Of a DNA stretch of 7,866 bases, positions 1-7,745 are shown piece after piece (position 1 is the first letter of the stretch; each line of letters begins with the position of its first letter). Source of the DNA: Holdemanella sp. (GTDB lineage Bacteria > Bacillota_I > Bacilli_A > Erysipelotrichales > Erysipelotrichaceae); assembly GCA_021442845.1 (NCBI GenBank), contig JABUSD010000312.1:1-7866 (forward strand), written 5' to 3'. The notes under the pieces are model-generated. The model was not told the DNA's origin. It ran no database searches and was given only the letters and a program-made list of their open reading frames with translations. The position numbers and the translations under genes were made by a program.

Positions 1-266
1 TTGATGGACATACGGAAAATCTTGAATCCCATTTCCGCAGCTAATGCGATATCTTCCTTATAGTGGTGATAGAAATCGGTAGCTTCTCTTGATGGATATA
101 AAGTTCCTTCTTCAAATTCTACAGTTAATCGTTTTGGACATGTATGCGATCCATTGGTACAGTGATCTGAAATAGATGGACCTTTTCCATCTACATTCCA
201 TGCCCCTTCATATTGGTTGGCAGCCGTAGCGCCTCCCCAGAAAAAGTTCTTTGGAAATGTTCTCAT
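1..266 (-). CDS. GH1 family beta-glucosidase / 6-phospho-beta-glucosidase, N-terminal 88 codons (partial)
   Basis: Reverse-strand translation from the ATG at 266 gives 88 codons without a stop and continues past the left edge. It opens with the GH1 signature MRTFPKNFFWGGATAANQYE. The Gln at residue 18 is the conserved residue that holds the sugar in the -1 subsite. Further in, YPSREATDFYHHYKEDIAL and then FRMSI match the typical GH1 beta-1/alpha-1 and beta-2 regions, with wording closest to bacterial 6-phospho-beta-glucosidases of the BglA/AscB type. The residues that bind the 6-phosphate, and both catalytic glutamates, lie outside the window, so plain versus phospho-glucosidase cannot be decided. 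There is no signal peptide, so it should be cytoplasmic. It follows the 417-residue hydrolase by 6 bases, with an AGGAA ribosome site lying across that gene's stop codon, and is therefore the seventh gene of the operon. In this context it may hydrolyse the beta-glucoside part of an apiosyl-glucoside. The family call is firm and the substrate is inferred. Confidence 0.93.
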   Translation of the reverse strand, partial: MRTFPKNFFWGGATAANQYEGAWNVDGKGPSISDHCTNGSHTCPKRLTVEFEEGTLYPSREATDFYHHYKEDIALAAEMGFKIFRMSI

Positions 267-272
267 AGTTTC

Positions 273-1526
273 CTACTTTCTAATAATATATAGCACATCC
301 TCTTTGAATGGATGCATATCAATTACAGATTGTTCTTTCTTATAAGTGATATTTAATTTGCATGTAAAGCGATTTTCTAAATCAATGCAATCTACTTTCC
401 AGTCTGTGAAGTCTTTATTTAGACGTACACATGTGTTTGATGGAAGATATACCAGCAATAGATTTTCATTTGCATAAGCAAGACGAATATCCGTTGTCTT
501 ATTCACAAGAAGTTCCTGTGCTGATGTTATGCCATCCACACCTAATTGTTCAAAGATTGTCTTTAAATATCCATAATCCCATGCACCTGGGAAATTCATC
601 GCTTCTTCAATGCACTTTGGCATATCAAATCCTTCCCCTAAGGATGCAGCAAATGAGCTAGTTGCCTTATGCCAGCTGTAGATTCCTGCAGCTCCGTATG
701 TGATACCAGCACATGCACCTGAAAGGATACTTACATAAGCGGCTCTTCGAACGTCTCTTCTTGTCCAGCGTCCATATTTACCACCTGAATATCCCATATC
801 CTCATAACATGGTTCTGAGTTTAATAATGGTTTATCTGGATATTTAGCCTGCATTTCTTCACTTAATGAATATGGCATAGTCAAATCATTTGAGTTATGT
901 CCTGACTGATAGAAGAACAGATCTAACATGCTTGCTAATTCTTCAGGAATATAGCTATAGCGACCTTTAATATGTGTAGTAAATAAACAATCCTTTGCCA
1001 ATGCCTTTAATTGTTTACCAACAGAAATGTAATATTTTTCTGTTTCTTCTGTCTGGAAATCTGTATCTCCTGTTACAACATAGATTGGATGTAAATCAGA
1101 GAATGTTTCATGCACTTTATTTACATAGTTTTCTAAGCAGTCAAATGGAAGAATTCCTGTTGGGAAAAGCTTAGATGCCCATGTTCCTGGAACATAGTTA
1201 CACCATAATACAACAAGTGCTACTTCAAATCCTTTTTCCTTGGCTGTCTTTACCATTTCTCTAGCACGAGTAAAATAGGCATTATCCAATTTATATGGAT
1301 CTTTATCTACAAATGGCCAGTAGTTTAAATTTGTGCTTGAAGCATCCCATTGAGGAAGAATATTAATCTGGATTGTGTTAAATCCTTGTACTTTTCTTTT
1401 ATATAGATAGTATATCCAATCTTCATTTTCGATATTTGTGAATGCAGACCAGCAAGTGTCCGCAAGATAGAAGAATGGTTTTCCATCCTTTAATAATGTC
1501 TTATTATTATTTGATACTGTTAACAT
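273..1526 (-). CDS. DUF4038 / GH140-like glycoside hydrolase, 417 aa (candidate apiosidase)
   Basis: A cytoplasmic TIM-barrel hydrolase of the DUF4038 group, which contains the GH140 apiosidases. The barrel starts almost at residue 1 with KPFFYLADTCW (16-26) and continues with GFNTIQINILPQWD (48-61). A candidate acid/base Asp154 lies in VVTGDTDF, and a candidate nucleophile Glu238 in KPLLNSEPCYE. After RRAAYVSILSGACAGITYGA (260-279) a short beta domain (about 345-417) closes the protein. From memory, the characterised GH140 enzyme uses an Asp acid/base and a Glu nucleophile, which fits this protein. It lacks the N-terminal DUF5060 domain of its operon paralog. There is no signal peptide or membrane segment. 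It lies 11 bases downstream of the kinase, and its ribosome site is weak (a purine run, AGAAAGAAAAG), so translation may rely on coupling. Its proposed role is removal of beta-D-apiofuranosyl units from an imported plant glycoside. Other DUF4038 activities remain possible. Confidence is high for the fold and moderate for apiose. Confidence 0.88.
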   Translation of the reverse strand: MLTVSNNNKTLLKDGKPFFYLADTCWSAFTNIENEDWIYYLYKRKVQGFNTIQINILPQWDASSTNLNYWPFVDKDPYKLDNAYFTRAREMVKTAKEKGFEVALVVLWCNYVPGTWASKLFPTGILPFDCLENYVNKVHETFSDLHPIYVVTGDTDFQTEETEKYYISVGKQLKALAKDCLFTTHIKGRYSYIPEELASMLDLFFYQSGHNSNDLTMPYSLSEEMQAKYPDKPLLNSEPCYEDMGYSGGKYGRWTRRDVRRAAYVSILSGACAGITYGAAGIYSWHKATSSFAASLGEGFDMPKCIEEAMNFPGAWDYGYLKTIFEQLGVDGITSAQELLVNKTTDIRLAYANENLLLVYLPSNTCVRLNKDFTDWKVDCIDLENRFTCKLNITYKKEQSVIDMHPFKEDVLYIIRK

Positions 1527-6168: not shown

Positions 6169-6173
6169 ATTCT

Positions 6174-7745
6174 TTACCTTTCCTTTACTATAAGTAACCA
6201 GTCTTCTTTATCTGGTTTATTAGGGATGTTCCATTCATTGTTTTCAACTGTAAATACAGTGCTTTCTAAATAGTGATTATTACGAGGATTAAACCATGTC
6301 ATTTCATAGGTTGTGCTATTAAAACCTTTTAGAATTTCTGTTTTACGTGTTGATGCAGGATAATATAGTATCCAATGTGAGGCATCCTTAGATACTGTTA
6401 CAAGTGGTAACTTCTTTCCAAATGGATTTCCAATATTATCATTCCCTGCATGATATGGATACAGTTCCCAAAATTTCTCCTTCAAGTAAAAATCCTTCAT
6501 ATAAGCCATCTGCTGAGCACCTTCGCCTTCAATGGCTTCATACCATGTGATTCCAAACTTGTTAAATAAGCTCATACCGTTTGGCTCACCTTTTTCATAG
6601 TATGTATCCCAAATTCCTTGTGCTCCATATGTAAATCCACATCCTCCAGACTGGATGGATATGTAAGCGCACCTTCTTCCCATGGATGCATCACATAAAC
6701 GCGATCCATTCTCTTCCAATGTAGAACAGAATTCATAGAATACTTCCCCTTCTACAAATGGCTTATCGTTATGTTTTGCCATGAATTCCTTATAATCATT
6801 CGCACTTACAACAAAATCTCCATGACCTGCCTGATTCAGTGTAAAATCAAACCATTCCTCATCCTGATAATAACTTGCGAATGGTCTTTCATTTGTGTAG
6901 TGAGCTGTCTGTAGATGATTGTATCCATCCTTATTCTGAACATAGAGAGCTACCTCTCTCCATCCATCTACATAATATTTCTGTATACTTTTATCATATC
7001 CACCAACTTCTCCAGCTAATGTCCAGACCATTGGCAGCGCTCCATAACGTGCAATAATATATCTTGCCAGATTCTTTTCCTGTTCAATATTATTTTCAAT
7101 CGACATAAACCAGGCAAATCCTAAAGCATTTACAATTCCCTTGTCTGCTAAATAATACATTCTTCTATCCAGTTCATTCTGATAGAATTCCACGTTTGGA
7201 ACATTTTTTCCTTTCCAATACTTGGCATCACCACCCATCAAAGCATCACTTCTTAGATTGGTCTGATAGATGGTAAATCCTTGTTCAAAGCGTTTATCAA
7301 CCATGCCTTTGAACATGCTTTTCATAGTGGGGTGATTGGATTCATCCCATCTTTCTTTATAAGAAAACTCCCAATGTGTATCTCCAAGCCAGAAGAAAGG
7401 TGTCCCATCGGCATATGTGAAATACCTTTTATCTTCACTGACCTTGATAAATCCGTGCTTATAGATATCTAAATCCCCCTCATATGGGATACTTTCAATC
7501 TCACCACAGATTCCATTTAGTCCGGTTTCTAAAGGTGCTTTTATTACATATGTCCACTTTCCTTCTTCAATTGGAGCAAAGGAAATCTTATAAACATTCT
7601 TTCCATCCCAATAGGCTTCTCTTTGAATCACCTGATTTGATGGCCCTGTAAACCAGGCTTCAATGATACAATCCAGGAATGGGTTTTCATATTCTTTTCT
7701 ACTTTCAAACGTTAGAACAATCTGTCTATAATTTTCAATCTTCAT
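6174..7745 (-). CDS. DUF5060 + DUF4038 glycoside hydrolase, 523 aa (GH140-related, candidate apiosidase)
   Basis: The first gene of the operon has three domains. A beta-sandwich of DUF5060 type spans about 1-95 (LTFESRKEYENPFLD; AYWDGKNVYKISFAPIEEGKW). A TIM-barrel DUF4038 domain spans about 98-425, opening with GTPFFWLGDTHWE (114-126). A C-terminal beta domain spans about 440-523, with WFNPRNN and NIPNKPDKEDWLLIV, resembling the collagenase-type domain that often ends these proteins. The nucleophile position aligns with its paralog as Glu334 in KPFVEGEVFYE. The acid/base position is Glu246 in VWTLAGEVGGYD, where the 417-residue paralog has Asp154. There is no signal peptide, so it acts inside the cell. 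The ATG is chosen because an in-frame TAA lies four codons upstream (7755-7757). No good Shine-Dalgarno site precedes it. It is proposed to cut apiosyl or a related plant glycosidic bond, perhaps with a different aglycone preference from the shorter enzyme. The domain layout is well supported and the substrate is inferred. Confidence 0.87.
   Translation of the reverse strand: MKIENYRQIVLTFESRKEYENPFLDCIIEAWFTGPSNQVIQREAYWDGKNVYKISFAPIEEGKWTYVIKAPLETGLNGICGEIESIPYEGDLDIYKHGFIKVSEDKRYFTYADGTPFFWLGDTHWEFSYKERWDESNHPTMKSMFKGMVDKRFEQGFTIYQTNLRSDALMGGDAKYWKGKNVPNVEFYQNELDRRMYYLADKGIVNALGFAWFMSIENNIEQEKNLARYIIARYGALPMVWTLAGEVGGYDKSIQKYYVDGWREVALYVQNKDGYNHLQTAHYTNERPFASYYQDEEWFDFTLNQAGHGDFVVSANDYKEFMAKHNDKPFVEGEVFYEFCSTLEENGSRLCDASMGRRCAYISIQSGGCGFTYGAQGIWDTYYEKGEPNGMSLFNKFGITWYEAIEGEGAQQMAYMKDFYLKEKFWELYPYHAGNDNIGNPFGKKLPLVTVSKDASHWILYYPASTRKTEILKGFNSTTYEMTWFNPRNNHYLESTVFTVENNEWNIPNKPDKEDWLLIVKER

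What the first reader, a model, noticed from the sequence alone, without database searches (positions are those of the whole stretch)
1..7745. Probable D-apiose salvage operon joining apiosidases to the isomerase-kinase-split transketolase route
Seven contiguous genes provide two DUF4038 (GH140-type) hydrolases, an aldose isomerase-like protein, an FGGY kinase, both halves of a transketolase and a GH1 glucosidase. Family knowledge links DUF4038/GH140 to apiose release. An apiose pathway via apulose and apulose 4-phosphate uses a two-subunit transketolase to yield xylulose 5-phosphate and dihydroxyacetone phosphate. Release and full entry into central metabolism would therefore be encoded in one transcript. 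The combination, rather than any single gene, makes the case.
Basis: partly seen in the sequence, partly recalled or inferred. Interest (0 to 1): 0.8.

Follow-up and report, generated by a model that had tools for sequence, protein, structure and literature searches.

The report
Apiose salvage operon for plant glucosides
Seven tightly packed bacterial genes encode two apiosidase-family enzymes, the start of a glucosidase-family enzyme and a four-gene set that many relatives keep in the same order; together they would likely cut the branched plant sugar apiose off plant glucosides inside the cell and feed it into central metabolism, which suggests that genes now labelled "glycerol kinase" and "transketolase", including a set in Listeria, may be mislabelled.

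Summary
In detail: seven genes on one strand, with gaps of at most 11 bp or short overlaps. The last (GH1) is cut by the contig end and resembles 6-phospho-beta-glucosidases.

The apiose reading is well supported. Isomerase, both transketolase halves and kinase keep one order in 76 of 80 related loci. In trees rooted on E. coli TktB, both halves group with AptA/AptB, apart from 13-14 other split transketolases. Three of seven enterobacterial AptAB clusters read here carry an isomerase of the same family. The kinase is glycerol-kinase-like, as AplK is, but not clearly its orthologue.

I propose uptake of apiosyl-glucosides as 6-phosphates, then cleavage inside. Listeria monocytogenes has the same operon, annotated "glycerol kinase" and "transketolase".

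No activity is shown, and no PTS lies in the window. The isomerase-kinase-transketolase route is known; the PTS-linked cytosolic apiosidase arrangement is the new variant.

The parts
6174..7745 (-). GHa: apiosidase-family hydrolase, DUF5060 + PF13204 + Collagen_bind_2 (523 aa), no signal-peptide-like stretch; acid pair Glu246/Glu334, i.e. Glu in place of the Asp of BT_1012
   Evidence: direct reading of the motifs
4768..6168 (-). ISO: predicted D-apiose isomerase, AraI/FucI fold (466 aa); E293, D320, H336, H425/H426 invariant in 30 of 30 aligned
3932..4756 (-). TKN: transketolase N half, AptA-like, ThDP-binding domain (274 aa)
3013..3957 (-). TKC: transketolase C half, AptB-like; likely start ATG at 3939
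1538..3016 (-). KIN: FGGY kinase, glycerol-kinase-like, predicted D-apulose kinase (492 aa)
273..1526 (-). GHb: PF13204 hydrolase of the PTS-linked sub-branch (417 aa), no signal-peptide-like stretch; acid pair Asp154/Glu238
3..266 (-). GH1 N-terminal fragment (88 aa), 6-phospho-beta-glucosidase type, cut by the contig end

Best explanation
This tightly packed seven-gene cluster, from a probable Erysipelotrichaceae bacterium, likely serves to remove apiose from plant apiosyl-glucosides in the cytosol and to carry the free apiose into central metabolism through a predicted isomerase, kinase and two-part transketolase. Proposed steps. (1) A beta-glucoside PTS outside the window (inferred from relatives) would import an apiosyl-glucoside such as an apiin-type glycoside and phosphorylate the glucose at O6. 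(2) GHb, perhaps helped by GHa, would release apiose. (3) The GH1 enzyme would split the remaining glucoside 6-phosphate into aglycone and glucose 6-phosphate. (4) ISO would convert D-apiose to D-apulose. (5) KIN would phosphorylate apulose at O4. (6) TKN+TKC would move the two-carbon unit of apulose 4-phosphate to glyceraldehyde 3-phosphate, giving xylulose 5-phosphate and dihydroxyacetone phosphate. Shown: gene content and spacing, family membership, conserved order, Apt grouping of both transketolase halves, lack of signal-peptide-like stretches, PTS linkage of the GHb branch in relatives. Inferred: every reaction, the single transcript, and the phosphorylated state of the substrate.
Against: No enzyme activity is shown. 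The window holds no transporter. The kinase does not group with AplK: most operon kinases lie outside a 100/100 branch that holds AplK, GlpK, two rhizobial kinases and the Listeria and G009 operon kinases (long-branch and composition warnings), so the kinase step may have been recruited more than once; the earlier tree was unresolved (78/4). The Apt-like transketolase clade also holds rhizobial and Caballeronia pairs of unknown substrate. Four of seven enterobacterial Apt clusters read show no isomerase of this family in the stretch held. The ISO tree rests on very long branches. 35 of 80 operon loci have no PF13204 ORF in the stretch held. Four GHb loci have the PTS but no isomerase module, so GHb may cleave another sugar there. 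One GHb homologue (Limosilactobacillus fermentum, 39.8%) has no recognisable PTS nearby. In several operon loci (e.g. L027, L095, L097) the PTS gene is kilobases from GHb. The window's genome has 29 matches to this GH1 (some partial) and 15 to this PTS type, so one GH1 neighbour is weak evidence.
Confidence: 0.72

Rival explanations
1. The four-gene module serves apiose, but the hydrolases act on unphosphorylated apiosides or apiosyl oligosaccharides taken up by other transporters; PTS linkage reflects only uptake of plant beta-glucosides in general.
For: 35 of the 45 operon loci with PF13204-like genes carry non-GHb types and none of these has a PTS gene of the kinds searched. GH78 rhamnosidase genes lie in 9 of 83 loci, as beside BT_1012 (PMC4032388, passages). 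The window's genome is rich in PTS and GH1 genes anyway.
Against: The GHb branch is PTS-linked in 16 of 17 loci with readable flanks, with PTS genes of two different families (beta-glucoside IIABC and lactose/cellobiose IIC), and some loci add a 6-phospho-beta-glucosidase.
Confidence: 0.2
2. The module handles a different sugar (another branched or rare pentose or tetrose); the PF13204 enzymes here release that sugar.
For: Isomerases and FGGY kinases of these folds act on many sugars. The kinase does not group with AplK, and the Apt-like transketolase clade includes enzymes of unknown substrate. Four GHb loci lack the module.
Against: Four gene types, an apiosidase family and the Apt grouping of both transketolase halves all point to apiose; three enterobacterial clusters carry the same four types.
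Confidence: 0.15
3. Glycerol and pentose-phosphate genes, as annotated: a second glycerol kinase and a housekeeping transketolase.
For: Public annotation calls the Listeria and Monoglobus kinase 'glycerol kinase' and the halves 'transketolase'; KIN scores 515 bits to a GlpK subfamily model (cut-off 498).
Against: The genome has a separate kinase in the GlpK clade (C178) and a separate split transketolase (C224). KIN misses the GlpK equivalog cut-off, as does AplK. No glycerol gene lies in the window; an aldose isomerase and apiosidases do.
Confidence: 0.04
4. A sulfoquinovose transketolase (sulfo-TK) pathway: the isomerase's only NCBIfam match is sulfoquinovose isomerase.
For: SftI model at 103 bits; sulfo-TK clusters also use a two-part transketolase (PMC11659671, passages).
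Against: The score is far below the 700-bit cut-off, and two enterobacterial Apt-cluster isomerases score much the same (114 and 119 bits). In the passages seen the sulfo-TK route has no kinase step and uses SqwI and SqwF; none of the window's seven genes is assigned to those, though I did not search for them by sequence.
Confidence: 0.01

Closest known systems
D-apiose degradation I (isomerase, AplK kinase, AptAB transketolase; Carter 2018, not read, as cited in PMC13001218)
   Same: Same four gene types; both transketolase halves group with AptA/AptB; isomerase of the same family as in Klebsiella INF102, Rahnella and Sodalis clusters
   Different: Gene order ISO-TKN-TKC-KIN; LacI-type regulator in relatives in place of the sugar-binding (SorC-type) regulator; no RbsABC-type transporter in the window; kinase perhaps recruited separately; hydrolases and GH1 in the same gene run
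GH140 apiosidase BT_1012 (PF13204)
   Same: Same catalytic domain; GHb keeps the Asp/Glu pair
   Different: GHb and GHa lack a signal-peptide-like stretch; GHa has Glu for Asp; GHb belongs to a PTS-linked branch with its own invariant residues (e.g. W37, W60, R253: 18 of 18 in the branch, 0 of 38 other PF13204 proteins compared)
PTS / 6-phospho-beta-glucosidase (bgl-type) aryl-glucoside uptake
   Same: Beta-glucoside-type PTS, GH1 6-phospho-beta-glucosidases and a regulator in one locus in the same-genus genome
   Different: Apiosidase-family enzymes and an apiose-type pathway are added, so that a glycoside with a second sugar would be handled

Membership tests
D-apiose degradation I pathway | Two-part transketolase homologous to AptA/AptB | tested here: met
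   Rooted trees 99/97 and 100/99; the clade also holds three proteobacterial pairs of unknown substrate
D-apiose degradation I pathway | FGGY-family kinase encoded with the transketolase | tested here: met
   KIN adjacent; found in 76 of 80 loci
D-apiose degradation I pathway | Kinase orthologous to AplK | tested here: inconclusive
   Both GlpK-like; trees unresolved or separating KIN from AplK with long-branch warnings
D-apiose degradation I pathway | Aldose isomerase related to the one in enterobacterial AptAB clusters | tested here: met
   27-28% identity over about 410 residues, best non-operon match of those compared; present in 3 of 7 clusters read (against 20, 95, 96, 104)
D-apiose degradation I pathway | Activity on D-apiose, D-apulose and D-apulose 4-phosphate | not testable with these tools
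   Needs purified enzymes
AraI/FucI-fold aldose isomerases | Overall fold | tested here: met
AraI/FucI-fold aldose isomerases | Metal and acid-base ligands in place | tested here: inconclusive
   E293, D320, H336, H425/426 invariant in 30 of 30, but the map to AraA and FucI is weak
GH140 / PF13204 apiosidases | PF13204 catalytic domain above cut-off | tested here: met
   269 and 212 bits against 26.5
GH140 / PF13204 apiosidases | Asp + Glu catalytic pair as in BT_1012 (Asp187/Glu284, PMC4032388 passages) | tested here: met
   GHb D154 and E238, 18 of 18 in its branch. GHa has Glu246 for Asp, a form in 17.3% of the family (PMC4032388)
GH140 / PF13204 apiosidases | Release of apiose | not testable with these tools
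   No assay
GH1 6-phospho-beta-glucosidases | Phosphate-binding C-terminal motif (recalled: S...K-R-Y-G) | not testable with these tools
   Window copy truncated; the two GH1 proteins in the same-genus genome G001 carry it
Sulfo-TK sulfoquinovose pathway | Isomerase reaching the SftI model cut-off | tested here: not met
   103 of 700 bits
Sulfo-TK sulfoquinovose pathway | SqwI and SqwF genes | not tested
   Not searched by sequence; none of the seven window genes is assigned to them. Pathway from PMC11659671 passages

The most novel reading that the evidence does not exclude
A sub-branch of the apiosidase family has become PTS-coupled: it works in the cytosol on apiosyl-glucoside 6-phosphates delivered by beta-glucoside or cellobiose PTS systems, and with the isomerase-kinase-split transketolase module forms a complete route from intact plant apiosides (apiin-type) to central metabolism. 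The route would be widespread in Bacillota, including the 'glycerol kinase / transketolase / beta-glucoside PTS / DUF4038' operon of Listeria monocytogenes.
Probability: 0.45. Interest if true: 0.7.

Novelty: new variant of a known kind. Interest (0 to 1): 0.56.

Why it matters
Apiose is common in plant cell walls and flavonoid glycosides. If right, this gives a testable route by which Bacillota, among them many gut species and Listeria, use intact plant apiosides. It would correct a 'glycerol kinase/transketolase' annotation and add a possible phospho-glycoside branch to the apiosidase family.

Tried and rejected
Sulfoquinovose pathway: rejected (score far below cut-off, kinase present).

The first transketolase trees had only E. 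coli AptA/AptB and no outgroup, so the grouping said little about which side AptAB lies on; I rebuilt with more Apt sequences and a TktB outgroup.

The kinase trees did not support AplK orthology. In the ISO tree the three Apt-cluster isomerases fall on the operon side of a 96/99 split, but branches are very long, the bootstrap had not settled, and the Subdoligranulum row (branch length 10, placed inside the operon group) is probably a wrongly picked ORF.

Rival split-transketolase loci beat the operon copy against AptA in 4 of 20 genomes by a few bits; the one read in full (L161) carries an RbsABC-type transporter, transaldolase and RpiB, and no FGGY kinase or ISO relative was seen.

hhalign of the isomerase profile against single AraA and FucI sequences was too weak to map ligands. 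phmmer of the isomerase against PDB sequences found nothing up to E 1. A viral-contig scan with TKN found no relative.

Paper searches (10 of 10 used): 'apiose'+'apulose' gave 0 papers, 'd-apiose'+'apulose'+'transketolase' 0, 'apiose'+'fucose isomerase' 0, 'apiose'+'phosphotransferase system'+'glucosidase' 1, on a plant saponin, 'apiosidase' 20, listing only. Only open-licence papers are held and Carter 2018 is not, so I cannot say that the Bacillota module is unpublished. All paper content cited comes from passages, none from a whole text.
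Full report
WHAT IS THERE. The window is a complete 7,866-base contig of an incomplete 2.2 Mb genome. All seven genes run on the minus strand with gaps of 5-11 bp or short overlaps: GHa, isomerase (ISO), transketolase N half (TKN), C half (TKC), FGGY kinase (KIN), GHb, and the first 88 residues of a GH1 enzyme. A genome of the same family (G030) holds a contig of the same length and ORF layout as a record labelled Erysipelotrichaceae (L047), so the host is probably of that family.

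THE MODULE IS CONSERVED. One genome-contig scan with ISO (capped at the best 80 of 545 relatives) gave 80 loci, 76-84% identical. The order ISO-TKN-TKC-KIN, all on one strand, is present in 76 of 80; the four others lack KIN or TKC and KIN (L023, L054, L061, L068), one of them on a 3.9 kb contig. A LacI-type regulator is usually upstream and divergent (68 of 83 loci). A 55% identical ISO in G009 keeps TKN, TKC, KIN and a GHb, with a PTS gene, in a changed order.

APIOSE LINK, TRANSKETOLASE. E. coli SE15 aptA, aptB and aplK were taken by locus tag from PMC13001218 (passages; locus). Against TKN, TKC and KIN they are 41%, 34% and 37% identical. In 20 genomes the operon TKN is the best AptA match in 16 and second by a few bits in 4. 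Trees rooted on TktB, with 21 and 22 operon sequences, put operon TKN and TKC together with five enterobacterial Apt sequences at 99/97 and 100/99, apart from 13 and 14 Bacillota paralogues. That clade also includes Rhizobium, Sinorhizobium and Caballeronia pairs whose substrates are unknown. Both trees have long branches and the C-half tree carries long-branch warnings.

APIOSE LINK, ISOMERASE. PMC13001218 reports that Pectobacterium has apsI and that Escherichia lacks it. Of seven enterobacterial Apt clusters read, three (Klebsiella INF102, Rahnella, Sodalis) have an 'L-fucose/L-arabinose isomerase family' or 'fucose isomerase' gene between AptAB and an FGGY kinase; in the other four (E. coli SE15, Erwinia, K. 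aerogenes, K. pneumoniae KLP00155) none is annotated in the stretch held. That isomerase is 27-28% identical to ISO and its best non-operon match among those compared. I take it to be ApsI, but no call names it so. ISO's predicted structure (pLDDT 88) has an arabinose/fucose-isomerase fold. D-apiose has the same C2 configuration as D-glucose-type sugars, which sulfoquinovose isomerase also uses; this is reasoning from structure formulae, not a test.

APIOSE LINK, KINASE. KIN and AplK both score like glycerol kinases but under the equivalog cut-off. The second tree keeps most operon kinases and AplK apart and places the Listeria and G009 kinases in yet another group (with long-branch and composition warnings); the first was unresolved. 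The step is plausible, since apulose has a glycerol-like branch, but orthology is not shown.

APIOSIDASES. GHa and GHb match the PDB chain named Apiosidase (8t9w) and BT_1012. GHb keeps the Asp/Glu pair; GHa has Glu/Glu, a form seen in 17.3% of the family (PMC4032388, passages). PF13204-like ORFs occur in 45 of 80 operon loci, 24 of 47 with full flanks. In 20 genomes with 37 PF13204 genes in about 107 Mb, 12 have one within 10 kb of the operon TKN, where about 0.14 is expected at random (counted by hand; the 20 were picked by hand from the 80, mainly as isolates, after I had seen). None of 52 such proteins has a signal-peptide-like stretch by a simple hydrophobicity scan.

PTS LINKAGE OF GHb. 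Among 83 loci (80 plus L095-L097), GHb-type genes (40% identity or more) occur in 13. Eleven of these hold a PTS gene in the same stretch; the other two (L047, L096) are the same short contig without flanks. Of the 70 other loci 3 have a PTS gene (Fisher 1.6e-9, not corrected for kinship; most of the 11 are close relatives, and only PTS genes like three queries were sought). None of the 35 loci with other PF13204 types has one. In L027, L095 and L097 the PTS gene lies kilobases from GHb. To test this on loci not chosen by ISO, I searched 392 Bacillota genomes with GHb: besides the window's own, 4 matched (two of one genus), and all 4 lie next to or one gene from a PTS gene, without the isomerase module. 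Listeria monocytogenes carries LacI, then ISO-TKN-TKC-'glycerol kinase'-PTS beta-glucoside IIBCA-DUF4038. L. fermentum (39.8%, just under the 40% line) is the one negative. That makes 16 of 17 with readable flanks. The PTS genes belong to two families, beta-glucoside and lactose/cellobiose, which speaks for repeated pairing. In the same-genus genome G001 the operon continues with two 6-phospho-beta-glucosidase genes and is preceded by an alpha/beta hydrolase, LacI and a beta-glucoside-type PTS gene. GHb-branch invariants absent from 38 other PF13204 proteins include W37, Q59, W60, N110, T115, Y149, N236, R253 and D317; R253 as a phosphate contact is a guess.

MODEL AND LIMITS. The simplest account is uptake of an apiosyl-glucoside by a PTS, apiose release by GHb/GHa, glucose 6-phosphate release by GH1, and apiose catabolism by ISO, KIN and TKN+TKC. 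The apiose assignment rests on several agreeing lines; the phosphorylated substrate rests on gene linkage alone. GHb in loci without the module could act on another sugar. The window's own genome has many PTS and GH1 genes, so its GH1 fragment alone proves little.

NOVELTY. The pathway is known, and PMC13001218 says that gut Clostridia have been shown to degrade apiose, citing Carter 2018 (not held). What appears new within what I could search is the PTS-linked cytosolic branch and its union with the pathway, including the Listeria operon.

Noticed in passing
window 7849-7866: A perfect 18-bp inverted repeat at the contig edge, about 100 bp upstream of GHa; among the loci held no other copy with up to 3 mismatches except one 3-mismatch hit in L167. 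Could be an operator or an assembly-edge hairpin.
   Followed up: partly
L181 4004-13086 (NZ_LR134403.1): Listeria monocytogenes operon LacI-ISO-TKN-TKC-'glycerol kinase'-PTS-DUF4038; the record is labelled plasmid but its neighbours (rnjA, moeA, modA) look chromosomal.
   Followed up: partly
L186 (CP110761.1): An 11.6 kb linear Klebsiella 'plasmid' that is almost only an apiose cluster with an isomerase between AptB and the kinase; may be a stray chromosomal contig.
   Followed up: no
L182 9001-15232: Monoglobus pectinilyticus has the module followed by a DUF5060 protein; its kinase is also annotated 'glycerol kinase'.
   Followed up: no
L095 10768-12312: An Abhydrolase_10 protein lies directly upstream of GHa in the same-genus genome, with homologues in L027 and L030; perhaps an esterase for acylated apiosides. 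No match in the window's own genome.
   Followed up: partly
L191, L193: Rhizobial plasmids carry an Apt-like transketolase pair with an FGGY kinase, tpiA and SDR genes; substrate unknown.
   Followed up: no
G000:C208:3-398: A GH1 C-terminal fragment at a contig edge, 69% identical to a G001 operon GH1; possibly the far part of the gene cut off in the window.
   Followed up: no
Lactobacillus jensenii (PMC10711310, passages): A cluster with DUF4038, DUF5060, rhamnosidase and 'fucose isomerase' genes, read there as mucin- or glycogen-related, may be an apioside cluster.
   Followed up: no
L161, L164 (also L165-L169): Further split transketolases in Lachnospiraceae genomes, with at least two kinds of ABC transporter neighbours; several unassigned sugar pathways probably sit there.
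   Followed up: partly
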